A stretch of 64,000 nucleotides of DNA, taken from positions 1-64,000 of the IMG/VR virus record IMGVR_UViG_3300042691_021643. The stretch is one strand, 5' to 3'. Below are positions 44,248 to 55,334 of this stretch, in pieces. Position numbers and translations under genes: made by a program. Position 1 is the stretch's first letter. Each line of letters begins with the position of its first letter. A model generated the notes under the pieces. That model ran no database searches. It had not been told where the DNA came from and saw nothing but the letters and a program-made list of their open reading frames with translations. Source of the DNA: a virus.

Positions 44248-44254
44248 AATATTA

Positions 44255-44457
44255 AGTCAGGTGGCGGAATAGAATGTAATGATGATTTGGACGATTAGTC
44301 GACACGTAATCACGTGACTATTTCTATCCTTATCAGATGTTGAATCATCGAATCTTACATTCTTTGGTAGACGATAATCACGGAAACCTAATGAGGTAGA
44401 GAACGCAAGTGAGAGGTATCTGCGGATACCGTACGGGTTCGAATCCTGTCCTGACTA
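44255..44457 (+). tRNA. tRNA-Leu-like gene with large D-loop insertion
   Basis: Ends are tRNA-like: acceptor AGTCAGG/CCTGACT, T-arm ACGGG-TTCGAAT-CCTGT, a variable arm GGTATC/GATACC, discriminator A then CA. The Leu-type D-arm GCGGAAT...TTGGTAGACG is split by ~95 nt. The insert opens with AGAATGTAA and closes with TTACATTCT (9 bp), with GATGATT/AATCATC and TAGTC..ACGT aatc ACGT..GACTA nested inside. No normal 17-nt anticodon arm follows, so decoding is unclear. Confidence 0.6.
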
Positions 44458-44471
44458 CAATTTTGATATTT

Positions 44472-45032: not shown

Positions 45033-45069
45033 TTTTTTTTCTTATATTATATAAAATAAAACATAAATT

Positions 45070-45315
45070 ATGAAATGTATCAAATCAATTAAGTCAACTA
45101 AAAACACCGAAATCGGGGTAATTAAAAGAATTGACGACAAAGAAGCAGAATCAATGGTTAAATCAGGTTATTGGAAATATGTTCCTAAATCTGAATTTAA
45201 AATTAAAAAAGTAAAAGAAGATGAAACATTAAGGGAACAATATCCCGCCAATGTTGAAGGATCAAAAGAATTTAACAAGGCAAATAAAAAAAATAATAAA
45301 AAAGTTTCGAAATAA
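45070..45315 (+). CDS. Small basic protein
   Basis: An 81-residue Lys-rich protein starting MKCIKSIKSTKNTEIGVIKR and ending in an Asn/Lys tail. Short beta segments (EAESMVKSGYWKYVPKSEFK) suggest a small fold like those of nucleic-acid-binding proteins. Function unknown. Confidence 0.65.
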   Translation: MKCIKSIKSTKNTEIGVIKRIDDKEAESMVKSGYWKYVPKSEFKIKKVKEDETLREQYPANVEGSKEFNKANKKNNKKVSK

Positions 45316-45339
45316 TTTTTTTATTATTTCAAATTTACA

Positions 45340-45347
45340 TATATTTG
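45340..45347 (+). promoter_or_regulatory. Promoter -7 element TATATTTG
   Basis: TATATTTG fits TAnnTTTG, 18 nt before the ATG at 45365. The upstream half is weak. It marks a new transcription unit after the basic protein. Confidence 0.5.
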
Positions 45348-45364
45348 CATATATTTATAAGACA

Positions 45365-45457
45365 ATGACAAACTTGTTTAACATACTAACGATAGAGAAT
45401 ACACCAAATAATGGTGGTGGGTATGATGTGCCAGTATACAAACAAGTTCGGAGTTAA
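45365..45457 (+). CDS. Possible 30-residue peptide before tRNA array
   Basis: A short frame, starting MTNLFNILTIENTPNNGGGY and ending YKQVRS, lies between a promoter and a terminator ahead of the first large tRNA array. Its position is like that of the 33-residue frame at 47692, so it may be a leader peptide. Coding evidence is weak. Confidence 0.35.
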   Translation: MTNLFNILTIENTPNNGGGYDVPVYKQVRS

Positions 45458-45485
45458 AAAAATTTATTAAAACAAAATAAACATA

Positions 45486-45517
45486 AACCCGAACACAAAA
45501 AGTTCGGGTTTTTTTTG
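45486..45517 (+). terminator. Terminator ahead of tRNA array 1
   Basis: AACCCGAAC acaaaaa GTTCGGGTT plus a T run. It stands between the small frame at 45365 and tRNA-Pro. A weaker boxA-like GATCTTTGAAAT (45524-45535) follows, so readthrough into the tRNAs may be controlled here. Confidence 0.8.
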
Positions 45518-45538
45518 TTAATAGATCTTTGAAATAAT

Positions 45539-45612
45539 CGGGATGTAGTTCAGTCCGGTAGAATGCTTGGTTTGGGACCAAGATGTCGTAGGTTCGAATC
45601 CTGCCATCCCGA
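45539..45612 (+). tRNA. tRNA-Pro (TGG)
   Basis: Acceptor CGGGATG/CATCCCG, anticodon loop TTTGGGA in stem CTTGG/CCAAG, T-arm with TTCGAAT. Discriminator A, then CA. Confidence 0.95.
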
Positions 45613-45618
45613 CATAAT

Positions 45619-45690
45619 GTCTTCTTAGCTCAACGGTAGAGCAATTGGCTGTTAACCAATAGGTTTTAGGTTCGAATCCTAAAGAGGACG
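45619..45690 (+). tRNA. tRNA-Asn (GTT)
   Basis: Acceptor GTCTTCT/AGAGGAC, anticodon loop CTGTTAA in stem ATTGG/CCAAT. Discriminator G, then CA. Confidence 0.95.
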
Positions 45691-45695
45691 CAATC

Positions 45696-45777
45696 GCCCC
45701 GATGGTGGAATTGGTAGTCACGGCAGACTTAGGATCTGTTGCCTTATGGTGTGAGAGTTCGAGTCTCTCTTGGGGTA
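45696..45777 (+). tRNA. tRNA-Leu (TAG)
   Basis: Class II cloverleaf with acceptor GCCCCGA/TTGGGGT, anticodon loop CTTAGGA in stem GCAGA/TCTGT and a short variable arm. Discriminator A, then CA. Confidence 0.93.
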
Positions 45778-45786
45778 CATTAAATT

Positions 45787-45859
45787 GGCCGATTAGTTCA
45801 GCAGGTTAGAATGCGTGACTTGTAATCATGAGACGACAGTTCGATTCTGTCATTGGCCT
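45787..45859 (+). tRNA. tRNA-Thr (TGT)
   Basis: Acceptor GGCCGAT/ATTGGCC, anticodon loop CTTGTAA in stem CGTGA/TCATG. Discriminator T, then CA. Confidence 0.93.
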
Positions 45860-45864
45860 CATAA

Positions 45865-45938
45865 GCGGATTTCGCCTAGTTGGCATGGCACCACACTTCC
45901 ACTGTGGAATAGGGTCGGTTCGAGACCGTCAATCCGCT
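45865..45938 (+). tRNA. tRNA-Gly (TCC)
   Basis: Acceptor GCGGATT/AATCCGC, anticodon loop CTTCCAC in stem CCACA/TGTGG, T-loop TTCGAGA. Discriminator T, then CA. One mismatch in the T-stem. Confidence 0.9.
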
Positions 45939-45967
45939 CAGAATTTTTTTTATTCAAATATATTTTG

Positions 45968-45975
45968 TATGTTTG
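45968..45975 (+). promoter_or_regulatory. Promoter -7 element TATGTTTG
   Basis: TATGTTTG ends 9 nt before tRNA-Tyr, so transcription could start at or just before the mature tRNA. The -33 half is poor. It provides an internal promoter inside array 1. Confidence 0.55.
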
Positions 45976-45984
45976 AATTTGTAA

Positions 45985-46067
45985 GGTGTAGTTGAGCAAT
46001 TGGTTGGCTCGCCGGACTGTAAATCCGGTCCCTTCGGGGCTTGTAGGTTCGAGTCCTACCTACACCA
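45985..46067 (+). tRNA. tRNA-Tyr (GTA)
   Basis: Class II tRNA: acceptor GGTGTAG/CTACACC, anticodon loop CTGTAAA in CCGGA/TCCGG, variable arm CCC ttc GGG. Discriminator A, then CA. Confidence 0.96.
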
Positions 46068-46073
46068 CAAATT

Positions 46074-46145
46074 GCCGCTGTCGTCTAACGGTTAGGACGC
46101 GTCCCTTTCACGGACAAAATGCGAGTTCGATTCTCGTCGGTGGTA
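46074..46145 (+). tRNA. tRNA-Glu (TTC)
   Basis: Acceptor GCCGCTG/CGGTGGT (three wobble pairs), anticodon loop CTTTCAC, T-arm GCGAG-TTCGATT-CTCGT. Discriminator A. Confidence 0.9.
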
Positions 46146-46150
46146 CGATT

Positions 46151-46222
46151 GGTCTCATAGTTAATCGGCTATAATATTGCCCTGTCACGGCAAAGTGCCG
46201 GGTTCGATTCCCGGTGGGACCG
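46151..46222 (+). tRNA. tRNA-Asp (GTC)
   Basis: Acceptor GGTCTCA/TGGGACC, anticodon loop CTGTCAC in TTGCC/GGCAA, T-arm GCCGG-GTTCGAT family. Discriminator G, then CA. Confidence 0.95.
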
Positions 46223-46226
46223 CAAA

Positions 46227-46269
46227 CTTCAGGAGTAATTAACCTGAAGATGGAAGGTTCGAAACTTTC
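46227..46269 (+). pseudogene. tRNA fragment: hairpin plus orphan T-arm
   Basis: CTTCAGG agtaattaa CCTGAAG forms a 7-bp stem. It is followed by a perfect T-arm, GAAGG-TTCGAAA-CTTTC, but there is no matching acceptor or D-arm. The following GATTGGC recurs at 46304 and, as GATTGG, at the 3' end of the next gene. I read it as the 3' part of a decayed or recombined tRNA. Confidence 0.5.
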
Positions 46270-46272
46270 GAT

Positions 46273-46372
46273 TGGCTATGGTGTAATGGGCACACTGGTC
46301 CCGTGATTGGCTCGGTTATCGTCGAGTTTCAGTCGGGACCGGGGGATTCAGGTTCAATTCCTGATTGGTCAG
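46273..46372 (+). tRNA. tRNA-like gene with extended anticodon arm
   Basis: The acceptor TGGCTAT/TTGGTCA is imperfect, while D-stem GTG/CAC, T-arm TCAGG-TTCAATT-CCTGA and discriminator G then CA are fine. The anticodon stem CTGGTCCCG/CGGGACCGG (46295-46303 / 46334-46342) is 9 bp instead of 5. It holds a 30-nt loop with CTCG/CGAG inside. No 7-nt anticodon loop exists unless ~27 nt are removed. Decoding identity unknown. Confidence 0.55.
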
Positions 46373-46378
46373 CAAAAT

Positions 46379-46452
46379 GGACCCTTAGCTCAGTAGGTTA
46401 GAGCAAATGACTCATAATCATTAGGTGCACGGTTCGAGCCCGTGAGGGTCCA
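46379..46452 (+). tRNA. tRNA-Met or Ile2 (CAT)
   Basis: Acceptor GGACCCT/AGGGTCC, anticodon loop CTCATAA in ATGA/TCAT. A Watson-Crick first pair rules out an initiator. It is elongator Met or lysidine-modified Ile. Discriminator A, then CA. Confidence 0.93.
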
Positions 46453-46457
46453 CATTT

Positions 46458-46529
46458 AGTCCTTTAGCTTAGTGGGAAAGCGGTTGTCTTACATGCAACA
46501 TAGAGTGTGTTCGATTCACACAGGGACTA
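46458..46529 (+). tRNA. tRNA-Val (TAC)
   Basis: Acceptor AGTCCTT/AGGGACT, anticodon loop CTTACAT in GTTGT/GCAAC, T-arm GTGTG-TTCGATT-CACAC. Discriminator A. Confidence 0.94.
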
Positions 46530-46637
46530 CCCCCGATATGTATGTGTAAGCAAGAAGCATATCATCAGTTGGGATCTTACAGTCCACGAACTGGGGTCCG
46601 GTGGGAACCGGGATGAGAGTACCCGAACCTCTCAAAC
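46530..46637 (+). ncRNA. Four-hairpin spacer RNA
   Basis: A 108-nt spacer between tRNA-Val and tRNA-Gly is unlike the usual 5-10 nt gaps. It forms GATATG/CATATC, CAGTT/AACTG, CCGGT ggga ACCGG (GNRA-type tetraloop) and GAGAG/CTCTC hairpins in a row. No tRNA cloverleaf or reading frame fits on either strand. Confidence 0.5.
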
Positions 46638-46709
46638 GCAGATATAGCACAATGGTTAGTGTTCGGCCTTGCCAAGGCTGAGATGCCAGTTCGAATCTGA
46701 CTATCTGCT
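46638..46709 (+). tRNA. tRNA-Gly (GCC)
   Basis: Acceptor GCAGATA/TATCTGC, anticodon loop TTGCCAA in CGGCC/GGCTG. Discriminator T, then CA. Confidence 0.94.
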
Positions 46710-46714
46710 CAAAT

Positions 46715-46864
46715 TGTACTGTGGTGAAATTGGCAGACACCCCCACTCGTCTCGTGGGCGTCGACAACGAAATAGGTAAATGGATAAGGGTTGACCACAA
46801 GCTAGCTAGCATATTTGTCCTTTACCGAATCGCGACATAGACGGTTCGAATCCTCTCGGTACAG
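46715..46864 (+). tRNA. tRNA-Leu-like gene with giant variable arm
   Basis: Acceptor TGTACTG/CGGTACA and a Leu-type D-arm (GTGAAATTGGCAGACAC) are clear. The anticodon arm CCCAC-TCGTCTC-GTGGG lacks the near-universal T33 and would read GTC. A variable region of ~90 nt folds into GTCG/CGAC and GGTAAATGGA/TCCTTTACC. The T-stem GACGG/CCTCT is poor. It may be a pseudo-tRNA, an interrupted tRNA or a specialised RNA. G then CA follows. Confidence 0.5.
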
Positions 46865-46893
46865 CATATATTTTTGACAAATAAAAATAGTTT

Positions 46894-47133
46894 ATGACGA
46901 TCTTAATCGGCATCAATGAATTAGAAGAAGAATTTCAAATACCGTGGAAGATGGGATTAGTTAATCATTTGGTCATTGATTACGCAGACAACGCAATCTA
47001 TGGTACATTTGAGAAAAAAGAAGTAATTATTTTTAGGTTCAAAAAATATGGTTGGGTTTGTGATAATAGATACAATTTATACACACTATCAAGTGGTGAG
47101 GCAGGTATCATGATTAACATGAATTCAACATAA
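46894..47133 (+). CDS. Unknown small protein
   Basis: A 79-residue protein placed between two RNA arrays. Beta-rich with a Tyr/Asn-rich end (WVCDNRYNLYTLSSGEAGIM). No family recognised. Followed 24 nt later by the DUF458-type gene. Confidence 0.65.
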   Translation: MTILIGINELEEEFQIPWKMGLVNHLVIDYADNAIYGTFEKKEVIIFRFKKYGWVCDNRYNLYTLSSGEAGIMINMNST

Positions 47134-47157
47134 AATATTTATTAATAACAACATGTT

Positions 47158-47619
47158 ATGAGAAAATTTAAAACATTATTCGGAATTGAGATTGATAATC
47201 TTGCTGAATATATTAAAGAATATATTTCAACAAGAGAAAATGTGGAGATATTAGTTGGCGCCGATTCTCAAAATTATAGTAATAGAAAAACTATATATGG
47301 AGTTGTTATTGCCTTATACACAAAAGGTAAAGGTGCACATGTTTTGTGTTCAAGAGATACTGTTCCAATTGAGAGAAACACATCAACCAGATTACTTACT
47401 GAAGTTTGGAAATCAATTGAGACCGCAGAATTTTTAAAAGAAAATGGTTTACCAAAACCATTATGGATTGATATTGACTTAAATCCTGATCCGAAATTTA
47501 AATCAAATACCGTATTAAGACAAGCGGTTGGTCTTGTTGAAGGTATGGGTTATCAAGTTAGATATAAACAATTAGGTGCTATGGTAACATACGCCGCAAA
47601 TCACTTAGTTAGAAATTAA
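47158..47619 (+). CDS. DUF458-type RNase H-like protein
   Basis: A 153-residue protein similar to the YkuK/DUF458 family, which has an RNase H-like fold. Key parts are EILVGADSQNYSNRKTIYGV (first acidic residue after the beta strand), LWIDIDLNPDPKFKSNTVLR and QAVGLVEGMGYQVRYK. A nuclease role near many RNA genes is attractive, but activity in this family is not proven to my knowledge. Confidence 0.8.
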   Translation: MRKFKTLFGIEIDNLAEYIKEYISTRENVEILVGADSQNYSNRKTIYGVVIALYTKGKGAHVLCSRDTVPIERNTSTRLLTEVWKSIETAEFLKENGLPKPLWIDIDLNPDPKFKSNTVLRQAVGLVEGMGYQVRYKQLGAMVTYAANHLVRN

Positions 47620-47654
47620 ATTATACTTTTCTTTGTTTTTACAATATTTATTAT

Positions 47655-47662
47655 TATCTTTG
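47655..47662 (+). promoter_or_regulatory. Promoter -7 element for tRNA array 2
   Basis: TATCTTTG followed by TAAAACAA, the same core as the promoters at 49003 and 49092. It drives the putative leader peptide, attenuator and the tRNAs from 47855. Confidence 0.7.
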
Positions 47663-47691
47663 TAAAACAAAAGATTAAAAAAATAAATTCG

Positions 47692-47793
47692 ATGAAACAG
47701 TTCAAACATATTATGTCGTTTATTAGTTGTTCAAAATGGGCAAGTCAGCGTCATATCCGTATGTCCCGATCTGTTTGTATGAATTTGTGTTAA
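47692..47793 (+). CDS. Putative 33-residue leader peptide
   Basis: A short frame (MKQFKHIMSFISCSKWASQR, then HIRMSRSVCMNLC) starts 30 nt after the promoter. It has three Cys, a Trp, two His and several Arg, all residues decoded by tRNAs of the array downstream. A base-pairing choice with the following terminator (see regulatory feature) makes it a candidate attenuation leader. Its short length keeps confidence modest. Confidence 0.45.
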   Translation: MKQFKHIMSFISCSKWASQRHIRMSRSVCMNLC

Positions 47794-47847
47794 AATATTT
47801 TAATAAGTAATTCAAAAAAACCTCGGGACAAAATCTCGAGGTTTTTT
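47762..47847 (+). promoter_or_regulatory. Candidate attenuator of tRNA array 2
   Basis: The terminator CCTCGGGA caaaa TCTCGAGG (47821-47841, followed by TTTTTT) overlaps an alternative pairing. TGTCCCGA inside the leader frame (47762-47769) is fully complementary to TCGGGACA (47823-47830). The two structures exclude each other, as in translation-coupled attenuators. The tRNA genes begin 8 nt after the T run. Confidence 0.5.
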
Positions 47848-47854
47848 GTTTTAT

Positions 47855-47927
47855 GGGCTGTCATGTTCCAAGGCTGGCGAAGGACCCTTGCAAGGTCTTT
47901 GGGAGATTTCGATTATCTCACGGTCCA
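47855..47927 (+). tRNA. tRNA-Ala (TGC)
   Basis: Acceptor GGGCTGT/ACGGTCC carries the G3-T70 wobble pair that defines Ala identity. Anticodon loop CTTGCAA, T-arm GAGAT-TTCGATT-ATCTC. The D-arm is odd (CCA aggc TGG). Discriminator A, then CA. Confidence 0.9.
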
Positions 47928-47933
47928 CATAAT

Positions 47934-48007
47934 GTTCGGGTAGATCAATTGGTGAGATCATTCGCCTGATACGCGAAAGGTTGTAGGTTCGAGTCCTACT
48001 CCGAACA
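47934..48007 (+). tRNA. tRNA-Ile (GAT)
   Basis: Acceptor GTTCGGG/TCCGAAC, anticodon loop CTGATAC in TTCGC/GCGAA, T-arm GTAGG-TTCGAGT-CCTAC. Discriminator A. Confidence 0.95.
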
Positions 48008-48012
48008 CGAAT

Positions 48013-48085
48013 GGTACACAAGCTAACTTAGTAGAAGCATTGGACTGAAAATCCAAGGGACTTGGAGCGTAACCAAGGTGTACCA
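48013..48085 (+). tRNA. tRNA-Phe (GAA), non-canonical T-loop
   Basis: Acceptor GGTACAC/GTGTACC, anticodon loop CTGAAAA in TTGGA/TCCAA, T-stem CTTGG/CCAAG. The T-loop is AGCGTAA in place of TTCRANN, and the D-loop (AACTTAGTAGA) lacks the usual GG pair. Both partners of the elbow contact are thus changed. Discriminator A, then CA. Confidence 0.85.
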
Positions 48086-48094
48086 CAAACATAT

Positions 48095-48168
48095 TCCCTC
48101 GTAACTCAATTGGCTAGAGTACCACACTTTTAATGTGGGAGTTTCGAGTTCGAATCTCGACGGGGGAA
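48095..48168 (+). tRNA. tRNA-Lys (TTT)
   Basis: Acceptor TCCCTCG/CGGGGGA, anticodon loop CTTTTAA in CCACA/TGTGG, T-arm TCGAG-TTCGAAT-CTCGA. Discriminator A, then CA. Confidence 0.95.
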
Positions 48169-48172
48169 CAAT

Positions 48173-48244
48173 GGTCGGATGGCCGAGTGGATTAGGTGGA
48201 GGTCTGCAAAACCTCTTACGTCAGTTCGATTCTGACTCCGACCT
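48173..48244 (+). tRNA. tRNA-Cys (GCA)
   Basis: Acceptor GGTCGGA/TCCGACC, anticodon loop CTGCAAA in GAGGT/ACCTC. Discriminator T, as expected for Cys, then CA. Confidence 0.95.
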
Positions 48245-48251
48245 CAAATAC

Positions 48252-48324
48252 ACGGGTGTGGTGAAATTGGTTATCATTTCGGTCTCCAAAACCGACGTTT
48301 CAGATTCGAATTCTGACATCCGTG
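48252..48324 (+). tRNA. tRNA-Trp (CCA)
   Basis: Acceptor ACGGGTG/CATCCGT, anticodon loop CTCCAAA in TCGGT/ACCGA, T-arm TCAGA-TTCGAAT-TCTGA. Discriminator G, as expected for Trp, then CA. Confidence 0.94.
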
Positions 48325-48328
48325 CAAT

Positions 48329-48401
48329 GGTTCTATGGTGTAATGGATTAGCACACGAAGCTACGGACTTCGGAGTTTGGGTTCGAGTCCTAATAGAACC
48401 A
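48329..48401 (+). tRNA. tRNA-Arg (ACG)
   Basis: Acceptor GGTTCTA/TAGAACC, anticodon loop CTACGGA in CGAAG/CTTCG. A34 is normally deaminated to inosine by TadA, which the host would supply. Discriminator A, then CA. Confidence 0.94.
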
Positions 48402-48406
48402 CATAT

Positions 48407-48478
48407 TGTTCCGTGATGTAATGGTTAGCATACAAGAATTTGACTCTTGTAGTATAGGTTCGAGTCCTATCGGAACAT
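48407..48478 (+). tRNA. tRNA-Gln (TTG)
   Basis: Acceptor TGTTCCG/CGGAACA, anticodon loop ATTTGAC in CAAGA/TCTTG. Discriminator T, then CA. Confidence 0.93.
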
Positions 48479-48484
48479 CATAAA

Positions 48485-48567
48485 GGAGAGGTCGTATAGT
48501 GGTTTAGTACAGTAGTCTTGAAAACTACCGAGTTTAGGCTCCGTGGGTTCGAATCCCACCCTCTCCG
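48485..48567 (+). tRNA. tRNA-Ser (TGA)
   Basis: Class II: acceptor GGAGAGG/CCTCTCC, anticodon loop CTTGAAA in GTAGT/ACTAC, long variable arm, T-arm GTGGG-TTCGAAT-CCCAC. Discriminator G, then CA. Confidence 0.95.
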
Positions 48568-48573
48568 CATATG

Positions 48574-48650
48574 GTGGCCTGAGATGGGTTGGTTACATCG
48601 TCAGATTGTGGCTCTGAAGAACACGGGTTCGACTCCCGTAGGTCACACCA
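48574..48650 (+). tRNA. tRNA-His (GTG)
   Basis: Acceptor GTGGCCT/AGGTCAC, anticodon loop TTGTGGC in TCAGA/TCTGA. The base before position 1 is G, fitting the His-specific G-1. CCA is encoded. Confidence 0.93.
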
Positions 48651-48653
48651 AAA

Positions 48654-48742
48654 GGAGAGTAAACTACGACGGTGAGTAGACATGCCTGCTAAGCATTGTG
48701 TTCGTTAATTCGGATGAGGTTCGATCCCTCTACTCTCCGCCA
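48654..48742 (+). tRNA. tRNA-Ser (GCT)
   Basis: Class II: acceptor GGAGAGT/ACTCTCC, D-stem CTAC/GTAG, anticodon loop CTGCTAA in ATGC/GCAT. Discriminator G and encoded CCA. Confidence 0.94.
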
Positions 48743-48745
48743 AAT

Positions 48746-48818
48746 GCCGTGGGTTAGTGGAATACGACTATCTCTCATAAGGATGGAGAACACAGTTCGA
48801 ACCTGTGCTACGGTACCA
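48746..48818 (+). tRNA. tRNA-Met or Ile2 (CAT)
   Basis: Acceptor GCCGTGG/CTACGGT, anticodon loop CTCATAA in TATCT/GGATG, T-arm CACAG-TTCGAAC-CTGTG. CCA encoded. One of the two non-initiator CAT tRNAs probably reads ATA as Ile after modification. Confidence 0.9.
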
Positions 48819-48838
48819 AAAAAAAGTTTTAAAAAGAT

Positions 48839-48869
48839 TTTGTATTTTAAAAAAGTATTTATATCTTTG
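48839..48869 (+). promoter_or_regulatory. Promoter for initiator tRNA
   Basis: TTTG (48839-48842), 19 nt, then TATCTTTG (48862-48869). This is a consensus Bacteroidota promoter placed 18 nt before tRNA-fMet. Confidence 0.8.
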
Positions 48870-48874
48870 TAAAA

Positions 48875-48886
48875 GTTCTTTAAACA
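48875..48886 (+). promoter_or_regulatory. boxA-like site before tRNA-fMet
   Basis: GTTCTTTAAACA is very close to the E. coli rrn boxA core CTCTTTAACA. It lies between promoter and tRNA. Confidence 0.65.
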
Positions 48887-48887
48887 T

Positions 48888-48959
48888 CGTGGCGTGGAGA
48901 AGTGGTATCTCACTAGGCTCATAACCTAGGGACCGTTGGTTCGAATCCAACCGCCGCAA
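48888..48959 (+). tRNA. Initiator tRNA-fMet (CAT)
   Basis: Acceptor CGTGGCG/CGCCGCA has the C1-A72 mismatch that marks bacterial initiator tRNA. Anticodon loop CTCATAA in CTAGG/CCTAG, T-arm GTTGG-TTCGAAT-CCAAC. The usual three G-C pairs next to the loop are only partly present. It has its own promoter and boxA. Discriminator A, then CA. Confidence 0.9.
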
Positions 48960-48978
48960 CAAAAAAGTTTTAAAAAGA

Positions 48979-49010
48979 TTTTGTTTTTTGAAAAACTCTT
49001 TTTATATTTG
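48979..49010 (+). promoter_or_regulatory. Promoter upstream of giant RNA (distal)
   Basis: TTTTG (48979-48983), 19 nt, then TATATTTG (49003-49010). CGGT aatacac ACCG follows as a small hairpin. The AAAAAAGTTTTAAAAAGATTTTG stretch ahead of it is a copy of the one before the fMet promoter. Confidence 0.7.
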
Positions 49011-49067
49011 TAAAACAATTCGGTAATACACACCGAAAAAGTTCTTAAAAAAAAAGTTTGACAAAAA

Positions 49068-49099
49068 TTTGGAAAGTTGAAAAACACTTCTTATCTTTG
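49068..49099 (+). promoter_or_regulatory. Promoter of giant RNA (proximal)
   Basis: TTTG (49068-49071), 20 nt, then TATCTTTG (49092-49099), with the repeated tail TAAAACAATCGG. Transcription would begin near 49106. Confidence 0.75.
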
Positions 49100-49121
49100 T
49101 AAAACAATCGGAAACGATAAA

Positions 49122-49133
49122 GTTCTTTGAAAA
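49122..49133 (+). promoter_or_regulatory. boxA-like site before giant RNA
   Basis: GTTCTTTGAAAA, preceded by the mini-hairpin TCG gaaa CGA. This places the long non-coding transcript under the same type of antitermination signal as the tRNAs. Confidence 0.6.
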
Positions 49134-49135
49134 TA

Positions 49136-50030
49136 TTGGGCGGTCTATAGTCCATAAAATAAACCATGAAAGTGGTATAAAGTGGAATACCTTGGTTTTG
49201 GTATTCTGCGGCTTGGGTAACCGAGCTCGAGTAGACAAACGAGATATCGTCTGACCTTTAGTACTGAGGGTAACACTGTAGGGAAAGTGGTTGGGCGATC
49301 AAGCGATGTGGGTCGTTTGGTTGAGGTGGGAACACCAATAAGAATAACTCGTAGAATTATTGCAAGAAATGTTGTTATCCGACTTCATAATTGCGTTTTT
49401 CAATATTATGGTTGTCTTAAAACCGAAAGGTATGTTAGTGTACAGGTGGTGCTGTTATTAACCTTAACCTTAGCCTACCAAGGCATGAGTTATGAAGATG
49501 AGCAAAAATATGGAGGTGGGGACATCTCAGAGGGTAGTTTAGTATTTAGCCGTTCAAAAGATGGCTGAGCTGGTGACGAACCACTACCTTCACAATCCAC
49601 AAACCAATAACTTGCATCCATTTAATTGCAAAATTAATAAATCAAGGAAAAGTGTTCGTCAGTTGTGGATGACAGGTCACTACATAGTCATGAGTTGTTC
49701 ATGGCCATGAAGGGTCCCAAGCCCAACATGATTTTCACCAAAGTTCTCTAATCTCGCAAGGATTAATTGGGGTGGCAACCTCGAAGAGTGATGAGTAATG
49801 AGAGAGTGATTCACAACTTAAGGATTGGTTAATCTAATTGACCGTGACTGATTATTACTACTCAAAAGGTAGTGGATAAGGGAAGAATCAATAATGTCCC
49901 AAAGATAATCACCCGAACGTGTAATCTCAGCGTTTTATTTTCCTGATTTTTATAAAATCATGGTGGTGGAGTAATAAAAAGATTTCATGCCGCAAGGCCC
50001 CAAAGGTTAGATTTTTCTAACCTTTTTTTG
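49136..50030 (+). ncRNA. Giant structured RNA (GOLLD/ROOL-class candidate)
   Basis: An almost 870-nt non-coding RNA plus its terminator, next to the tRNA array. TTGGG (49136-49140) pairs with CCCAA (49999-50003) as a closing stem. Internal helices include GAATACC/GGTATTC (49185-49206), CTTGG gtaa CCGAG, ACGA gata TCGT and GGTG ggaa CACC, all with GNRA-type loops. The terminator AAAGGTTAGA ttttt TCTAACCTTT ends it at 50024. Reading frames here have alien composition. Length, tetraloops and phage-tRNA setting match the giant GOLLD or ROOL RNAs. Identity is not proven by sequence alignment. Confidence 0.7.
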
Positions 50031-50061
50031 TTTTTATATTTTTTTTATTTATATTATACCT

Positions 50062-50814
50062 ATGAGATTAATTTGTATATCAGACACACATTCTTTACAT
50101 GAAAGAATGACACATAAAGTTGAAAAATATATCGATCCTGATCAAGACAATATACTCATCCATGCGGGGGATTGTACTAATATGGGTAGAGAACCTGAAA
50201 TTATTGAATTTGTTTATTGGTATCAAAATTTAAAAGGATTTGATACCAAGATCTTTATTGCGGGTAATCATGATTTTGGTTTTGAACATTATAATGGTCT
50301 TCGTCATAGTAATGAGGCACCTTGGTTACATCATATAATAAATGAGGAGAATTTATCTCAATCAGATGTCGTTTATCTTCATGATTCTGAATTTGTAATT
50401 GAACATCCGAAATTTTCAAGACCAATTAAATTTTATGGAAGTCCTTGGCAACCTGAATTTTATAATTGGGCATTTAATCTTCCAAGAAATGGTTGGGAGT
50501 TAGAACTTAAATGGAAAGAAATACCAGATGATACTGATATATTGATCACACACGGACCTCCACATGGTTGTAGAGATTTTACACCACAAAATTTACAAGT
50601 TGGTTGTGAATTGTTGAGATATAGATTAGATACATTAAAACCACTTGTCCATGTGTTTGGACATATTCATCATGCATATGGTGGTGCATATATTGATGAT
50701 GTTTTATACATTAACGCATCAACATGTACAGAAAGATATGTCCCACGTAATAGACCTATTGTTGTTGATTTAAAAGAAGAAGATGGTAAAATAGTTACTA
50801 CCTATATTGATTAA
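50062..50814 (+). CDS. Calcineurin-like metallophosphoesterase
   Basis: A 250-residue metallophosphoesterase with all motifs in order: CISDTHSLHE (D-x-H), LIHAGDCTNMG (G-D), IAGNHDFG (G-N-H-D), ILITHGPPHG and VFGHIHHAYG (G-H-x-H). It could hydrolyse a phosphodiester, for example a nucleotide or RNA end. The nearby RNA genes and distant repair genes make an RNA role possible but unproven. TATTTATA lies just before the ATG. Confidence 0.88.
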   Translation: MRLICISDTHSLHERMTHKVEKYIDPDQDNILIHAGDCTNMGREPEIIEFVYWYQNLKGFDTKIFIAGNHDFGFEHYNGLRHSNEAPWLHHIINEENLSQSDVVYLHDSEFVIEHPKFSRPIKFYGSPWQPEFYNWAFNLPRNGWELELKWKEIPDDTDILITHGPPHGCRDFTPQNLQVGCELLRYRLDTLKPLVHVFGHIHHAYGGAYIDDVLYINASTCTERYVPRNRPIVVDLKEEDGKIVTTYID

Positions 50815-50855
50815 GTTTTTCATTTTTATATGATATTTATATATAAACAATATCT

Positions 50856-51056
50856 ATGAAAAATATAATTGATTTTTTAAAAAACCTATTAACAAAAAAA
50901 TCTGAAGAAGTTATTTCAGAAATAAAACAAAAGGTTGTATCTGAAATAAAGGGTGAACCTGAGAAAGTAGAAGAACCTGTTAAGGTTGAGGAACCAAAAG
51001 AAGAAATCGTCGAAGAAAAACCCAAAAAAAGAGGTAGAAAGAAAAAGGTAGATTAA
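50856..51056 (+). CDS. Small charged protein
   Basis: A 66-residue protein with N-terminal amphipathic helix (MKNIIDFLKNLLTKKSEEVI) and a Glu/Val/Lys/Pro tail ending in KPKKRGRKKKVD, a basic patch like DNA- or RNA-binding tails. No family recognised. Confidence 0.65.
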   Translation: MKNIIDFLKNLLTKKSEEVISEIKQKVVSEIKGEPEKVEEPVKVEEPKEEIVEEKPKKRGRKKKVD

Positions 51057-51078
51057 TAAAAAAAATAAAAGATAAATT

Positions 51079-51107
51079 GGGTTAAATTTTTATTTAACCC
51101 TTTTTTT
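51079..51107 (+). terminator. Terminator before tmRNA
   Basis: GGGTTAAA ttttta TTTAACCC followed by seven T. It insulates the tmRNA unit from the gene upstream. Confidence 0.85.
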
Positions 51108-51110
51108 GTC

Positions 51111-51135
51111 TATATTTGTGAAAGTTCTTTAAAAT
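51111..51135 (+). promoter_or_regulatory. tmRNA promoter and boxA
   Basis: TATATTTG at 51111-51118 (TAnnTTTG type) and GTTCTTTAAAAT at 51124-51135 (boxA type) precede the tmRNA by 2 nt. The -33 half is weak because it overlaps the terminator. Confidence 0.6.
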
Positions 51136-51137
51136 AT

Positions 51138-51530
51138 GGGGGTGTCCAGGTATTGATTGGCGTTTATATGGTAAATGGGCACGTAGTCAGATGTCATCTA
51201 TGACTTAAATCTACGGTGGTAAAAATCAAACGGCAACGTTTACAACAACATGGAAATTGCAGGTATCCTTGCAACTTCTAAAGTAGCTGCTTAATAAGTA
51301 CCTACTGTCGGGTCGGTTAGGACATATAACCCAGGAACAGAAGTCCGTTATACGGGTCACAGGTCAGAGCTCGTTTAAAATAATTCTGAGACCAAGTTGT
51401 TTGTAGGTAGGTTTCTCACATATATCAAACCTAATATTTTGGAACATTGAGAACCAATGTTATACTAAACGTGTAGTCCATCTATTGTATGGCGAACAAG
51501 ACAAGGGTTCGATTCCCTTCACCTCCACCA
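51138..51530 (+). ncRNA. ssrA: tmRNA (ssrA)
   Basis: A 393-nt transfer-messenger RNA, which rescues stalled ribosomes and tags the product. The tRNA-like ends pair GGGGGTG with CACCTCC, the T-arm is AAGGG-TTCGATT-CCCTT, and ACCA is encoded. Reading from GGC at 51232 gives GNVYNNMEIAGILATSKVAA and two stop codons (51292-51297). The Bacteroidota host form, as I recall it, ends NNYALAA. The ending SKVAA and the length of 20 residues are unusual. Pseudoknot-forming repeats follow the tag. Confidence 0.93.
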
Positions 51531-51536
51531 AAAATT

Positions 51537-51563
51537 AAACCCATCGAATTCGATGGGTTTTTT
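51537..51563 (+). terminator. Terminator of tmRNA
   Basis: AAACCCATCG aatt CGATGGGTTT and a T run, 7 nt after the CCA end. Confidence 0.9.
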
Positions 51564-51590
51564 ATTTATAATAACTGAGGTTTATAAACG

Positions 51591-51692
51591 AACAAAGAGG
51601 TCTTTAGGACCCCTTTGTCGAGATTTGGAATACCCCCTTTCGTTTTTTTCGAGTTATCATCTAATGGCGACCAAACCATTAAACTCTAATAT
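51591..51692. other. Two hairpins between convergent units
   Basis: ACAAAG-a-GGTC ttta GGACC-c-CTTTGT (about 51594-51619) and GAGTT...AATGG cgaccaa ACCATT..AACTC (about 51650-51686) fill the gap between the tmRNA and the convergent minus-strand gene. They may end the minus-strand transcript. No reading frame fits. Confidence 0.5.
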
Positions 51693-51703
51693 AAATATCT
51701 AAT

Positions 51704-52654
51704 TTAATAGTTTTGTGCTATTGTTTTCAAAAAATTTAATCCAAATTGACTATTCATATCCATTAAACCACCACCCTGTTGTTGTAGATTCTCTTGTCCA
51801 TTAATCCCTAATCTATCAATTTGGACCAAATCTTCTTGACTTGTTGATTGATTAACAACTTGTGAAAATCTTGGATCGTTTGCCAATTTTTCTCTAAATT
51901 GTTCATCTTCATTGAATTTCTTTTCAAACGCATCAAAACTCGGTAATCCAAACATGGCTAAAACACCATTAGCGATTATAAATTGTTTTACCATATTTCT
52001 TCTACCACGTCTTGCAGGCATAACTACGTTCCACCAATTAGATAACCAAGTACTTGGTGCTTTTCCTGTTTTTGCAATATATTCTGCCAATTTTTCTCCT
52101 TGAAAGAAATTTTTAAAACCTGTACTAAATTTTCCACCAGCAGAGATCGTAGATCCAATCTGTTTACCTAATCCAACAGGTCTTTGTAATATTTTACCAA
52201 TCGCGGTTGTGTGTTCCGCCATTGCATGTCTTAATCCACCAGCGGCTTTGGTACCAATAATTGGTACTTTTTCTAAACTTCTAATTGTGTTGGTAACAGG
52301 TGCGGAATTTATGTATTTACCTAACTCAACATATTTTTTTGCGAACGTTGGATTTTTAGCCGCAAAGGCAACTAAGTTATCTGTATTTTTCAACGCACCT
52401 CTCGCAATAGGACTTTTAAGTAGTCTAATTATTGGTTTAGCGAAAAAATCACCCACTGTCGGTATTAGTGCAATTAACATTAAACCAGCGTAAAGATATT
52501 CCTTTTTGTATATGTAACGAATAATCAATATAATGTCAGCAACCTCACCTATCACAGGTATAAAACCTGCGATCATTAATGCATTTTCTAAACCATCTTC
52601 TTTTAGTAGTTGTTTAGATTCTAAGATTTCCTTTTTTGTATAAATTCTAGACAT
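51704..52654 (-). CDS. Virion-like protein with hydrophobic hairpin
   Basis: A 316-residue protein. Residues ~25-75 contain two hydrophobic helices with GFIPVIGEVADIILIIRYIY and GLMLIALIPTVGDFF. This type of segment is seen in toxins and in injected proteins that enter membranes. The centre is Gly/Lys-rich, and the end is Gln/Asn-rich (NQSTSQEDLVQIDRLGINGQ). It is the last gene of a minus-strand run of similar proteins. Confidence 0.65.
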   Translation of the reverse strand: MSRIYTKKEILESKQLLKEDGLENALMIAGFIPVIGEVADIILIIRYIYKKEYLYAGLMLIALIPTVGDFFAKPIIRLLKSPIARGALKNTDNLVAFAAKNPTFAKKYVELGKYINSAPVTNTIRSLEKVPIIGTKAAGGLRHAMAEHTTAIGKILQRPVGLGKQIGSTISAGGKFSTGFKNFFQGEKLAEYIAKTGKAPSTWLSNWWNVVMPARRGRRNMVKQFIIANGVLAMFGLPSFDAFEKKFNEDEQFREKLANDPRFSQVVNQSTSQEDLVQIDRLGINGQENLQQQGGGLMDMNSQFGLNFLKTIAQNY

Positions 52655-52661
52655 TTCAATT

Positions 52662-53282
52662 TTATTTATGGATTAATTTACAAAAGGGTTGACTAATCGC
52701 CTCACCTAAACCAGTATTTCTTATCATTTCACCTGAAAGGTTACCTAATATTGATCCAGGTATACCTGAAAATCCATCATTATTTCTATTTAGACCAAAT
52801 AATGTAGACACACCTGCTCTAAGTGATACCTCAACAACAGCATCCATAATATGTGGAGCATGTTTTAAACAAGTGGGACTATCTTTAAAAATTCTAATAA
52901 AATCAATTGGACTTAAATCAGCAAATGCCTGAGATAAAGTTGTTGACCAACCAGGACTAACACCCATGTATCTTAAAACCCAATTTATTGCCAATTCCTT
53001 TAAAAATGAAATACCACCTTCTTTTGCTAAATCACCAAAATCAAGTTTATCTAAACCAAGAGATGTTGGTAATGAAAATTCTTTTAATAATTGATCATTT
53101 ACTTCTTTTTCAGTATATCCTTCATTTATCAATTTAATAGATGTATTAAAACATTCTTTTAAATAAATGTTAGGATCATCAATATCTCTCAAATGTGAAA
53201 AAGATTCATTAAGATTAGATTTTCTTTTTTCATTTAATTTTTTACTAACTATACTCTTAGTATCTATTACTATTTTTTTCAT
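52662..53282 (-). CDS. Unknown virion-like protein
   Basis: A 206-residue protein. The basic N-terminus carries two L-N-E sites (SIVSKKLNEKRKSNLNESF), compatible with prohead targeting and cleavage. The centre (WVLRYMGVSPGWSTTLSQAF) is amphipathic. No family recognised. It starts 1 nt from the next gene upstream. Confidence 0.65.
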   Translation of the reverse strand: MKKIVIDTKSIVSKKLNEKRKSNLNESFSHLRDIDDPNIYLKECFNTSIKLINEGYTEKEVNDQLLKEFSLPTSLGLDKLDFGDLAKEGGISFLKELAINWVLRYMGVSPGWSTTLSQAFADLSPIDFIRIFKDSPTCLKHAPHIMDAVVEVSLRAGVSTLFGLNRNNDGFSGIPGSILGNLSGEMIRNTGLGEAISQPFCKLIHK

Positions 53283-53283
53283 T

Positions 53284-55317
53284 TTAGAATTCTGCGTTTG
53301 AGTTAATCCATTTATATTTCATATCACCATCCCCTTTATCGACTTGTTTTGTTTCTACATATCCCTTATCTTCTAAATATTTGTTTAATATGTAGTAATC
53401 ATTACCCGATAATTGTTTTCCTCTCCATACTGCGGCCAATCCTTTTTTAGGCCATCTTTTTCTTTTAATTAATTTATTACTAGCCAATAATTCCTGTAAT
53501 CTGTTTTCATCATATACAGGTTTAATTGGTGTTGGAGGAGGAGGTGCAGGTGTTGGTGCAACTGTAGGTGCTGGTGTTGCAGTAGGTCCTGGTACTGGTG
53601 TGCCGGTTGGACTTGGGTTTTTACCACAAATCTCTTTTTTAACATAATCGTAAACTTCTTTAGTTATAGGATTAATTGGCATCTTCACACCTCTTTTTTC
53701 AATGATTTCCTCTCTAAGTTTCGCCATCGTTTTAGGTCCAAAATAACCTTTTTGACTTGGTAAATCTAAACATGCTTGTATTTCGGCTATTTTTTCATTT
53801 CTACATCCGAATTCAAACGGGAAATCTTTACATTCTTTATATGGTACCGGTTCTTTTGTTGGTCTAGGTTCTTTTGTTGGACCAGGTACAGGAGGTACAG
53901 GACCATCTGTTGGTTTTGGTTGACCATCCCAAGTAATTTCAACACCACCTAAATCACCGGTATTGGTACCACCTCCACCGCCTTTACCACTTTCAATTTG
54001 GTTTATTAATGAATACATCTCTTGTTTGGCTCTAACAGATGATGCGTTTACTGTGTAGATATAATCTAATGATTTTTTTAGACTACCACCACCTAAACCT
54101 GATGCTTGGTATAGTTTCAAGAATTCTTTACCATTAGCACTTCCAGCATATTTTTTAAGTAATGCTAATGCACTTTGTAAATCACTACCTGAAACAGGGA
54201 AATCCAATAAATCAATCATTGTTTCAACATCATTATCTATTGATGAAGTTGCTGCCTCATTTATATCTTCATCTATAGTTTGGATGTTACCACCTTTACA
54301 TTTCCAACTACCCATGGCCCCCGTCTCTGTATTCATTACTCTACCATTTGTGAAAAATTGTACTCCTTTAGGATATTCACTTGATTTAACAATAACCCAA
54401 ACTTGGCCAGTTGAACTTGTCTCTACTTTACCTTGTTGTTTATTTATTAAATCTTGAATACATGGTGCCCATTGTCCATCATTTGGTGGTGGTGTTGGTG
54501 GGAAATCTTCTGGAACAGTTTCTCCACTATCTGCCATCATCCACCATAAGGCCGCTGCAGTTAAACCACCGGCTAGACCCCATTTTAATATATCTTTCCA
54601 ACTCTTTCCTTGTTTTATCCAAATAATTATTTTAATATACCAAGGTCTTGGAATTGGTGGTGGCGGTACCGGTGGTGGTTTTGGTAAAGTTATCTCTCCA
54701 CCGCCAGTTTTTTTAATTCTTCTATTTATGGCTTTATCAACTGCTTTAGTTGATACCCCGCCTCCCGATTTCATTTCTCTCGCACCTTTTTGAAGTAATG
54801 CCTCCGCTTCTTTAGCGGACATTCCATATGTTTTTTGTAATGTTTCAGATGCCAATTTAAAGTTTTCAGGATTTGCTGGCATTGCACCTCCTTTAGGATA
54901 AACCTTTTTTAGAATTTCTTTAAATGTTGGTGATTCACCAATAAGACCTTTTAATTTTAGTGCAATTTCAGGAACTTTATTTGCTTGTTTAATTACAAGA
55001 AATTTCTCAGCAGTACTGAGAGCCCCTGCTTCACCCGGTGCCTTTTTCATTGCGATTAATAACTCGTCAGCGGTTTTAAATCTAGAAAGTGCGGGTATTT
55101 CATTTTTTAATGTGGAAAATAAACCTTTTTCTGATTTTAAAATACTACCGATTGCTTCAATACCTTGTTGAGCAACTTTTGTTACTTGTTCTTCAATATT
55201 TTCAGGATTTTCTTCTTCTGATACCTCGATATTGGGATCTTCATTTTCTAATTTATCATTAACTGATTCAACTAATGATATCATTTTTCTAATTAATAAT
55301 GCGTCTCTATTTTCCAT
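53284..55317 (-). CDS. Large virion-like protein with PG-binding-type domain
   Basis: A 677-residue protein. One membrane helix (WGLAGGLTAAALWWMM) lies near residue 265, after a basic Pro-rich stretch. Residues ~495-550 (KECKDFPFEFGCRNEKIAEI, QACLDLPSQKGYFGPKTMAK) match a peptidoglycan-binding-like fold. Pro/Thr linkers (TKEPRPTKEPVPY, TGTPVPGPTATPAPTVAPTP) separate the domains. An envelope-crossing role during DNA entry is plausible. Confidence 0.7.
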   Translation of the reverse strand: MENRDALLIRKMISLVESVNDKLENEDPNIEVSEEENPENIEEQVTKVAQQGIEAIGSILKSEKGLFSTLKNEIPALSRFKTADELLIAMKKAPGEAGALSTAEKFLVIKQANKVPEIALKLKGLIGESPTFKEILKKVYPKGGAMPANPENFKLASETLQKTYGMSAKEAEALLQKGAREMKSGGGVSTKAVDKAINRRIKKTGGGEITLPKPPPVPPPPIPRPWYIKIIIWIKQGKSWKDILKWGLAGGLTAAALWWMMADSGETVPEDFPPTPPPNDGQWAPCIQDLINKQQGKVETSSTGQVWVIVKSSEYPKGVQFFTNGRVMNTETGAMGSWKCKGGNIQTIDEDINEAATSSIDNDVETMIDLLDFPVSGSDLQSALALLKKYAGSANGKEFLKLYQASGLGGGSLKKSLDYIYTVNASSVRAKQEMYSLINQIESGKGGGGGTNTGDLGGVEITWDGQPKPTDGPVPPVPGPTKEPRPTKEPVPYKECKDFPFEFGCRNEKIAEIQACLDLPSQKGYFGPKTMAKLREEIIEKRGVKMPINPITKEVYDYVKKEICGKNPSPTGTPVPGPTATPAPTVAPTPAPPPPTPIKPVYDENRLQELLASNKLIKRKRWPKKGLAAVWRGKQLSGNDYYILNKYLEDKGYVETKQVDKGDGDMKYKWINSNAEF

Positions 55318-55334
55318 TTTTTTATTTTTTATTT

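What the first reader, a model, noticed from the sequence alone, without database searches (positions are those of the whole stretch)
49136..50030. Nearly 900-nt structured RNA beside the tRNA array: likely a giant ornate phage RNA
The stretch has no credible gene, a base composition richer in G than the surrounding genes, a closing stem between its ends, many short helices capped by GNRA-type loops, two tandem promoters, a boxA and a strong terminator. GOLLD (~800 nt) and ROOL (~600 nt) RNAs are known from phages and prophages, often beside tRNAs, and form large RNA-only cages. An example in a Bacteroidota phage would widen their range. If it matches neither family it is a new giant RNA class.
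Basis: partly seen in the sequence, partly recalled or inferred. Interest (0 to 1): 0.92.

Follow-up and report, generated by a model that had tools for sequence, protein, structure and literature searches.

The report
Giant cage-forming RNA in Bacteroidota jumbo-phage
The stretch encodes a GOLLD RNA, a known kind of giant non-coding phage RNA that assembles into hollow cages, here in a very large phage that probably infects Bacteroidota, and many related phage sequences show that both halves of the molecule and its promoter leader are conserved.

Summary
Window 49530-49933 matches Rfam GOLLD (RF02032) over its full length at 338.5 bits (cut-off 150). Rfam models only the 3' half. The 5' half (49134-49525) is conserved too: 188 loci (the window's own included) carry both halves, spanning 767-879 nt. 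In the 97 clusters they form, 65 column pairs covary above all of 20 tree-based null simulations, 23 of them in the 5' domain. One contact, by my mapping the published inter-subunit bridge L20-J13/15, is complementary in 97 of 97 in four forms, so cage assembly is expected. No reading frame is conserved (open in 2 of 97). The claimed closing stem fails. The window is part of a phage of at least 287 kb with bS21, tmRNA, 23 or more tRNAs and hardly any Shine-Dalgarno sites, like published bS21 phages of Bacteroidota; the host is inferred. Not seen in print in my searches: a boxA-like leader before GOLLD in 164 of 180 loci; tmRNA within 5 kb of GOLLD in 15 of 19 records that have tmRNA; a syntenic relative without GOLLD. 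New member of a known kind; function remains inferred.

The parts
48980..49010 (+). upstream promoter-like site, TTTG-N19-TATATTTG (Bacteroidota type)
   Evidence: pattern scan; that this is the Bacteroidota promoter type is recalled
49068..49099 (+). proximal promoter-like site, TTTG-N20-TATCTTTG
   Evidence: TAnnTTTG within 150 nt upstream of GOLLD in 67 of 92 cluster representatives, shuffled 8.2
49121..49130 (+). boxA-like leader element AGTTCTTTGA
   Evidence: GTTCTTTGA within 150 nt upstream of GOLLD in 164 of 180 loci and 80 of 92 representatives, shuffled 0.25 and 0.1
49134..49525 (+). GOLLD 5' domain (not covered by the Rfam model)
   Evidence: present in 188 loci with both domains; 23 pairs above all nulls; 108 consensus pairs, 83 with changes on both sides, in 30 sequences
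49530..49933 (+). GOLLD 3' domain, RF02032 positions 1-416
   Evidence: 338.5 bits, cut-off 150; 42 pairs above all nulls
49590..49643 (+). variable unpaired linker (approximate limits), read as the counterpart of the disordered linker of the cryo-EM cage
   Evidence: poorly conserved in the alignment, unpaired in the Rfam model; no tRNA inside any of 188 GOLLDs by ARAGORN
49646..49647 (+). junction dinucleotide complementary to loop bases 49717-49718
   Evidence: GG-CC 50, GC-GC 36, GA-TC 7, TC-GA 4: Watson-Crick in 97 of 97; read as J13/15 of the published bridge B7 (PMC12286853, section read); mapping is mine
49716..49720 (+). hairpin loop CCCAA read as L20; 49717-49718 pair with 49646-49647
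   Evidence: pair 49647-49717 score 155.9, null maximum 103.8; loop limits from the Rfam structure line
49755..49759 (+). hairpin loop CGCAA read as L21a, self-complementary centre GC
   Evidence: CGCA in 81 of 97, TCGA (centre CG) in 10, neither in 6; the same GC/CG switch is published for L21a; mapping is mine
49934..50001 (+). 3' tail with hairpin, GTGGTGGA and GGCCCC, a separable element
   Evidence: like tail by a loose motif after 11 of 97 representatives, the window's included and L240 doubtful; also in G023, which lacks GOLLD
50002..50029 (+). intrinsic terminator
   Evidence: sequence, fold; terminator-like site downstream in 52 of 95 representatives, shuffled 1.0

Best explanation
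The stretch is the gene of a GOLLD RNA of a T4-like jumbo phage that most likely infects Bacteroidota. Shown by computation: it is GOLLD in its 3' domain by Rfam, its 5' domain travels with it and is structured, it is non-coding, and at least one covarying contact corresponds (by my mapping) to one that joins different subunits in a solved GOLLD. Inferred: it is transcribed from its own promoters; a boxA-like leader lets the polymerase run through about 850 untranslated nucleotides without Rho termination, as on rRNA operons; the RNA is ended by the terminator and about 14 copies assemble into a hollow RNA-only cage like GOLLD env-38. Most likely role, inferred and only about 0.3 probable: late in infection the cage acts on the translation apparatus (holding, storing or shielding ribosomes, subunits or tRNAs), together with the phage's own bS21, tmRNA and tRNAs. 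It is accessory, since a syntenic relative lacks it. The confidence given is for identity and cage formation, not for the role.
For: Rfam 338.5 bits over the full model. 188 complete loci, 97 clusters at 90% identity, median pairwise identity 67%. 65 covarying pairs above the maximum of 20 tree-based nulls, 23 in the 5' and 42 in the 3' domain; 59 of the 65 are at least 90% standard pairs, the lowest 62%. Contact 49646-7 with 49717-8 Watson-Crick in 97 of 97 in four forms, L21a-like GC/CG switch, as published for bridges B7 and B8. boxA-like motif in 164 of 180 loci; of 376 boxA-like sites in 1.86 Mb, 176 stand within 250 nt before GOLLD. Frame open in 2 of 97. One GOLLD above cut-off in each of 23 phage records of 251-642 kb chosen for having it. 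tmRNA above cut-off in 19 of these 23, within 5 kb of GOLLD in 15 of the 19. bS21 in 20 of 24 records, the window's phage counted twice. Relative G023 keeps the phosphoesterase gene and tmRNA but has no GOLLD.
Against: No expression data. Cage formation is carried over from env-38, whose sequence I could not align; my naming of J13/15, L20 and L21a comes from reading the Rfam structure line against the paper. The translation role rests on neighbourhood and on a ribosome pull-down that I know only as cited in PMC12286853; GOLLD and tmRNA may simply share tRNA islands. Of 16 capsid-matched records only 5 have GOLLD; many of the others may be fragments, but G023 looks like a real absence. boxA stands before only 4 of 19 ARAGORN tmRNAs, and 154 of 376 boxA-like sites lie elsewhere, against 72 sites in all in shuffles. 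Microcystis phage Mel-JY01 is as near or nearer than any named Bacteroidota phage by terminase and capsid bit score, which weakens that part of the host argument.
Confidence: 0.9

Rival explanations
1. It is GOLLD and forms a cage, but the cage acts in packaging, lysis or defence evasion (for example holding a protein, a metabolite or its own linker), and the nearness to tRNAs and tmRNA only reflects a hot spot for RNA genes.
For: GOLLD also lies among tRNAs in Acinetobacter and Streptococcus phages; published expression rises with lysis (passage); the 15 of 19 tmRNAs near GOLLD may reflect one inherited island. GOLLD is missing from a syntenic relative that keeps tRNAs and tmRNA.
Against: None direct. 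No tRNA was found inside any of 188 GOLLDs, so cargo is unknown.
Confidence: 0.5
2. The RNA is a monomeric regulator or sponge here, and cage formation does not apply to this clade.
For: No cage has been shown for this RNA; the linker could pair with targets.
Against: Contacts that are inter-molecular in the solved GOLLD covary in this clade; the linker is poorly conserved.
Confidence: 0.08
3. A different giant RNA (ROOL or a new class).
For: The 5' half has no Rfam match above cut-off.
Against: Full-length GOLLD match at 338.5 bits. Of 116 new loci brought in by a 5' pattern, 108 carry both domains and the other 8 run off the held stretch. A profile of the 5' half also finds the 5' region of two Acinetobacter phage GOLLDs (E = 4e-6 and 2e-8), though not that of Streptococcus phage Javan636.
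Confidence: 0.01
4. A diverged protein gene.
For: A 93-residue frame exists at 49287-49568.
Against: Open in 2 of 97 sequences; longest frames in relatives are near those of shuffled sequence (median 71 against 63).
Confidence: 0.01

Closest known systems
GOLLD RNA (Rfam RF02032; GOLLD env-38 14-mer, PMC12286853)
   Same: Full 3' domain (338.5 bits); two-domain layout with lengths like env-38 (5' residues 1-420, 3' residues 421-833 in the figure legend read; here about 392 and 404); contact read as bridge B7; in a phage beside tRNAs.
   Different: Jumbo phage of a probable Bacteroidota host; boxA-like leader; no tRNA in the linker; 3' tail element. Its 5' domain could not be compared with that of env-38; it is weakly like that of two Acinetobacter phages and not detected in Streptococcus phage Javan636.
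GOLLD of Acinetobacter phages (AM24, vB_AciJM_313)
   Same: RF02032 at 214.7 and 207.2 bits, in tRNA arrays, with a 5' region that the new profile recognises weakly.
   Different: Shorter alignable 5' region (293 nt for 346 profile positions in AM24). In AM24 the next tRNA starts 10 nt after the match, so maturation may go through tRNA processing.
ROOL RNA
   Same: Giant phage RNA, cage former (PMC12286853, sections 7-9 and 19 and the abstract read; the ROOL section itself not read).
   Different: No ROOL match in the window at Rfam's cut-off.
bS21-encoding Bacteroidetes phages of freshwater (PMC9723584) and huge phages (PMC7162821)
   Same: PMC9723584 (abstract and passages): bS21 on the reverse strand amid terminase, capsid, protease and portal genes; eight complete genomes of 293-331 kb with 5-25 tRNAs. 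The window has bS21 at 23351-23494 (+) amid minus-strand head genes. PMC7162821 (passages) predicts its five genomes over 634 kb to infect Bacteroidetes; that the 642 and 635 kb GOLLD records are among them is my inference from size and accession.
   Different: GC of the window is 30.6%, just under their 31.0-33.7%. Neither paper is among the 8 holding 'GOLLD RNA', and no paper held 'GOLLD', 'Bacteroid' and 'phage' together. Whether the window's phage is one of their genomes was not tested.

Membership tests
GOLLD RNA (RF02032) | Covariance-model score above Rfam's gathering score | tested here: met
   338.5 bits against 150, model 1-416
GOLLD RNA (RF02032) | Conserved 3' domain preceded by a structured, more variable 5' domain of about 400 nt | tested here: met
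   5' domain 49134-49525 with 23 covarying pairs above all nulls; 83 of 108 pairs with two-sided changes in 30 sequences
GOLLD RNA (RF02032) | Non-coding | tested here: met
   frame open in 2 of 97 sequences
GOLLD RNA (RF02032) | Phage or prophage, often near tRNAs | tested here: met
   virus record; 23 tRNAs in the window by ARAGORN, the last ending at 48960. In the wider clade a tRNA lies within 2 kb in 44 of 96 loci with room on both sides
GOLLD RNA (RF02032) | Conserved inter-subunit contacts (B7 L20-J13/15; B8 L21a palindrome) | tested here: inconclusive
   covariation as expected, but the loop naming is my mapping and env-38 was not aligned
GOLLD RNA (RF02032) | Forms a 14-mer cage | not testable with these tools
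   needs mass photometry or cryo-EM
GOLLD RNA (RF02032) | Expression rises at lysis | not testable with these tools
   no RNA data
ROOL RNA | Covariance-model match | tested here: not met
   no match at Rfam's cut-off in the window, none up to E = 5 in 48950-50100
bS21-encoding Bacteroidetes jumbo phages | bS21 gene in the terminase-capsid block, opposite strand | tested here: met
   PF01165 at 23351-23494 (+), 48.8 bits; capsid and terminase at 18953-20692 and 26175-27950 on the minus strand
Phage of a Bacteroidota host | Host link by CRISPR spacer or isolate | not tested
   indirect signs only: Shine-Dalgarno-like site in 1 of 64 frames of the window and 30 of 1675 in the 188 loci; nearest named terminase and capsid relatives are Flavobacterium, Rhodothermus and also Microcystis phages, all under 45% identity

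The most novel reading that the evidence does not exclude
In Bacteroidota jumbo phages GOLLD is part of a translation-takeover module: a phage ribosomal protein (bS21), a phage tmRNA with an unusual long tag, a large tRNA set and a GOLLD cage transcribed with an rRNA-style boxA leader. The cage would handle ribosomal particles or tRNAs during late infection, giving a role to a natural RNA nanocage.
Probability: 0.2. Interest if true: 0.88.

Novelty: new member of a known kind. Interest (0 to 1): 0.55.

Why it matters
GOLLD RNAs build very large natural RNA-only cages whose function is unknown. This case places them in many jumbo phages of probable Bacteroidota hosts, supplies a deep alignment (97 clusters) in which the 5' cap domain is covarying and searchable, and adds three handles on function: a boxA-like leader in nearly every relative, a tmRNA that is often next door, and a syntenic relative that naturally lacks GOLLD. 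Published lake metatranscriptomes of bS21 phages exist (PMC9723584), so timing and amount of the RNA could be measured.

Tried and rejected
Closing stem between the ends: rejected, although the fold of the single sequence shows it.

Coding frame 49287-49568: rejected.

New RNA class: rejected.

Two 14-base patterns were too unspecific: by the first profile search only 25 of 120 and 10 of 115 of the loci they newly brought in carried GOLLD. The genome-contig scan gave 3 loci (Lachnospiraceae, Nitrospina and Arcobacter MAGs); none reached Rfam's GOLLD cut-off and none matched the profiles, so it says nothing on hosts. Plasmids gave no match to the 3' domain. The 735 kb phage record resembles only the leader region, and the 8 kb fetched around it hold no GOLLD; the rest of that record was not searched.

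The Shine-Dalgarno control with other GOLLD phages was too small to use (2 of 9 frames). boxA stood before only 4 of 19 ARAGORN tmRNAs, so in these loci it is mainly a GOLLD feature, not one of all stable RNAs.

On a second look at the calls I corrected the loop partner to 49717-49718 (a first reading had it one base off) and recounted it, repeated the frame test on uncut sequences, and ran one more paper search and three passage look-ups.

Full report
What is there. The window is part of a 70,238-base virus record. Its bases 43360-56379 are 100% identical to a 13,020-base stretch of a 286,785-base IMG/VR contig (L202, in G001), so the phage is a jumbo phage. Between a tRNA array (ARAGORN lists 23 tRNAs in the window, the last ending at 48960) and a calcineurin-like phosphoesterase gene (50062-50814) lies the stretch of the finding. 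Rfam's GOLLD model matches 49530-49933 over all 416 positions at 338.5 bits, cut-off 150. Rfam models only the 3' domain; Kretsch et al. (PMC12286853; [quoted passage not shown]

Is the 5' half real? A DNA search of named phages found two uncultured huge phages, LR756502 (642 kb) and LR745206 (635 kb), that resemble the window in the 5' half as well, plus Acinetobacter phages in the 3' half only; Rfam finds GOLLD in both huge phages and in Acinetobacter phage AM24. Of 116 loci newly fetched by an 18-base 5' pattern, all 116 match the 5' domain; 108 also carry the 3' domain and in the other 8 the held DNA ends 1-50 nt after the 5' match. Of 14 loci with only the 3' domain by profile, 11 begin within 30 nt of the end of the held stretch; L253, L314 and Streptococcus phage Javan636 (L455) do not. 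188 loci, the window's own included, carry both domains with complete ends, spanning 767-879 nt (median 813), in 97 clusters at 90% identity.

Covariation. On 97 sequences x 857 columns (median pairwise identity 67%) I scored all column pairs by a G-test with average-product correction and compared them with 20 simulations that redistribute the observed substitutions along the tree. 65 pairs exceed the maximum of all 20 nulls, 23 inside the 5' domain and 42 inside the 3' domain; 56 of 65 lie in the RNAalifold structure of 40 of these sequences. 59 of 65 are at least 90% standard pairs, the lowest 62%. The null is my own version of R-scape's idea, not R-scape. The session's own tool, on 30 of the sequences, finds 108 pairs in the 5' domain, 83 with changes on both sides. 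Among the nine significant pairs outside the nested structure is 49647-49717: the dinucleotides at 49646-7 and 49717-8 occur as GG-CC (50), GC-GC (36), GA-TC (7) and TC-GA (4), complementary in 97 of 97. By position this is the L20-J13/15 kissing loop, which the cryo-EM structure shows to join different subunits (B7). The loop that I read as L21a has CGCA in 81, TCGA in 10 and neither in 6 of 97, the GC/CG switch that the paper gives as support for bridge B8. Other significant pairs outside the nested fold, 49577/8-49657/8, 49679-49845 and 49877-49924, look like tertiary contacts.

The fold of the window alone pairs GGGC at 49138-49141 with the 3' tail, but across relatives G49138 pairs with C49153 (GC 50, CG 22, TA 17, TG 6, AT 2 of 97), and end-to-end complementarity in 17 distinct sequences with a like tail is no better than shuffled (5.6 against 6.1). 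The tail itself (hairpin, GTGGTGGA, hairpin, CGGCCC, terminator) follows GOLLD in 11 of 97 representatives by a loose motif but also stands after a 148-residue frame in G023, which has no GOLLD: it is a separate element.

How it is expressed. Within 150 nt upstream TAnnTTTG occurs in 67 of 92 representatives (shuffled 8.2) and GTTCTTTGA in 80 of 92 (shuffled 0.1), in that order in 60 of 92; a terminator-like site follows in 52 of 95 (shuffled 1.0). In 31 of 185 loci a tRNA starts within 50 nt downstream, so some relatives may be matured by tRNA processing. That the motif is boxA, and that boxA protects untranslated transcripts from Rho, is recalled knowledge of rRNA operons, applied here by inference.

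Company. Each of 23 phage records of 251-642 kb has one GOLLD above cut-off, one of them (G003) a further partial match; they were picked because they had GOLLD, so this speaks only to copy number. 19 of the 23 have a tmRNA above cut-off; in 15 of 19 it lies within 5 kb of GOLLD, in the other 4 at 77-174 kb. About 0.7 of 19 would be expected within 5 kb from genome size alone (my arithmetic, ignoring kinship; some records are close kin). bS21 is found in 20 of 24 records, the window (23351-23494, +) and its own 287 kb contig both counted; SmpB in 5 of 24, not in the window's phage. A look that starts from the capsid protein instead: of 80 loci found I tested the 16 records of 75 kb or more; 5 have GOLLD, all of them 251 kb or more and already known to me, and 11 do not. 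Many of the 11 may be fragments, but G023 (202,894 bases, capsid 82% identical) keeps the phosphoesterase gene (61% identity), the tmRNA and tRNAs and shows no GOLLD by model or DNA. GOLLD therefore looks accessory.

Host. 1 of 64 frames of 100 residues or more in the window and 30 of 1675 in the 188 loci have a Shine-Dalgarno-like site, as expected for Bacteroidota. bS21 in the head-gene block matches published freshwater Bacteroidetes phages (PMC9723584; abstract and passages). PMC7162821 (passages) predicts its five genomes over 634 kb to infect Bacteroidetes. Nearest named relatives are mixed: for terminase, Microcystis phage Mel-JY01 (192 bits) and Flavobacterium phages immuto (186-187 bits); for capsid, Rhodothermus phage RM378 has the widest match (95% covered, 174 bits) but Mel-JY01 the highest score (293 bits). 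So the host argument rests on bS21, Shine-Dalgarno usage and promoters more than on these.

Novelty. GOLLD is known. Its presence across jumbo phages of probable Bacteroidota hosts, the searchable 5' domain, the boxA-like leader and the tmRNA link were not seen in the open-licence library: 'GOLLD' with 'Bacteroid' and 'phage' gave no paper; 'GOLLD' with 'boxA' gave four plant papers by title; of the five papers with 'GOLLD' and 'tmRNA' I read the GOLLD passages of all five and none links the two genes in a phage. One search was too broad to show absence. Kretsch et al. collected 806 GOLLDs from public genomes including phages, so some of these may be in their data; Weinberg et al. 2009, where GOLLD was first described (recalled), was not read, and Morgado et al. 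2020 is not held. GOLLD with tRNA clusters and an HNH gene in mycobacteria is published (PMC6582537, PMC9569102, PMC6418233; passages).

Noticed in passing
window 51138-51530 (+): Phage tmRNA (RF00023, 86.8 bits) that ARAGORN misses, with a boxA-like site at 51123. The tag frame reads GNVYNNMEIAGILATSKVAA (my reading); tags that ARAGORN gives in relatives include DNVYNTMEIAGLLATSKVAA, ATSTVAVA and ...DYAVAA. Many are long and do not end in the ALAA usual in bacteria (recalled), which may alter proteolysis of tagged proteins.
   Followed up: partly
window 49934-50029; L541 about 7425-7520; also L127, L143, L020, L220, L263: Recurrent element: A/T-rich hairpin, GTGGTGG, second hairpin, CGGCC(C), terminator. 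A loose pattern gave 36 hits (27 distinct, some clearly chance) in 543 loci, against 9 in a shuffle of 451 of them; no Rfam match in the window copy. Occurs after GOLLD and after a protein gene. Possibly a new small 3' RNA element.
   Followed up: partly
window 23351-23494 (+): Phage ribosomal protein bS21, on the strand opposite to the head genes around it.
   Followed up: yes
G023 (L541): Relative with capsid 82% identical and the same phosphoesterase-tmRNA-tRNA neighbourhood but no GOLLD: a natural GOLLD-less counterpart.
   Followed up: yes
window about 48655-48743 and 48745-48816 (+): Two tRNA-like sequences by eye (perhaps Ser-GCT and one with anticodon CAT), not listed by ARAGORN or by Rfam at cut-off.
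   Followed up: no
G003:C1:280598-280699 (-): Partial second GOLLD match (model 306-415, 30.8 bits, under cut-off) next to the full copy in a 330 kb phage record: perhaps a remnant duplication.
   Followed up: no
L541 6816-6941: tRNA match stretched to 126 nt, perhaps intron-bearing or damaged.
   Followed up: no
LR756501 608756-608837 (L004 4001-4082): A 735 kb phage shares the promoter-boxA leader region with the window; the 8 kb around it hold no GOLLD, the rest of the record was not searched.
   Followed up: no
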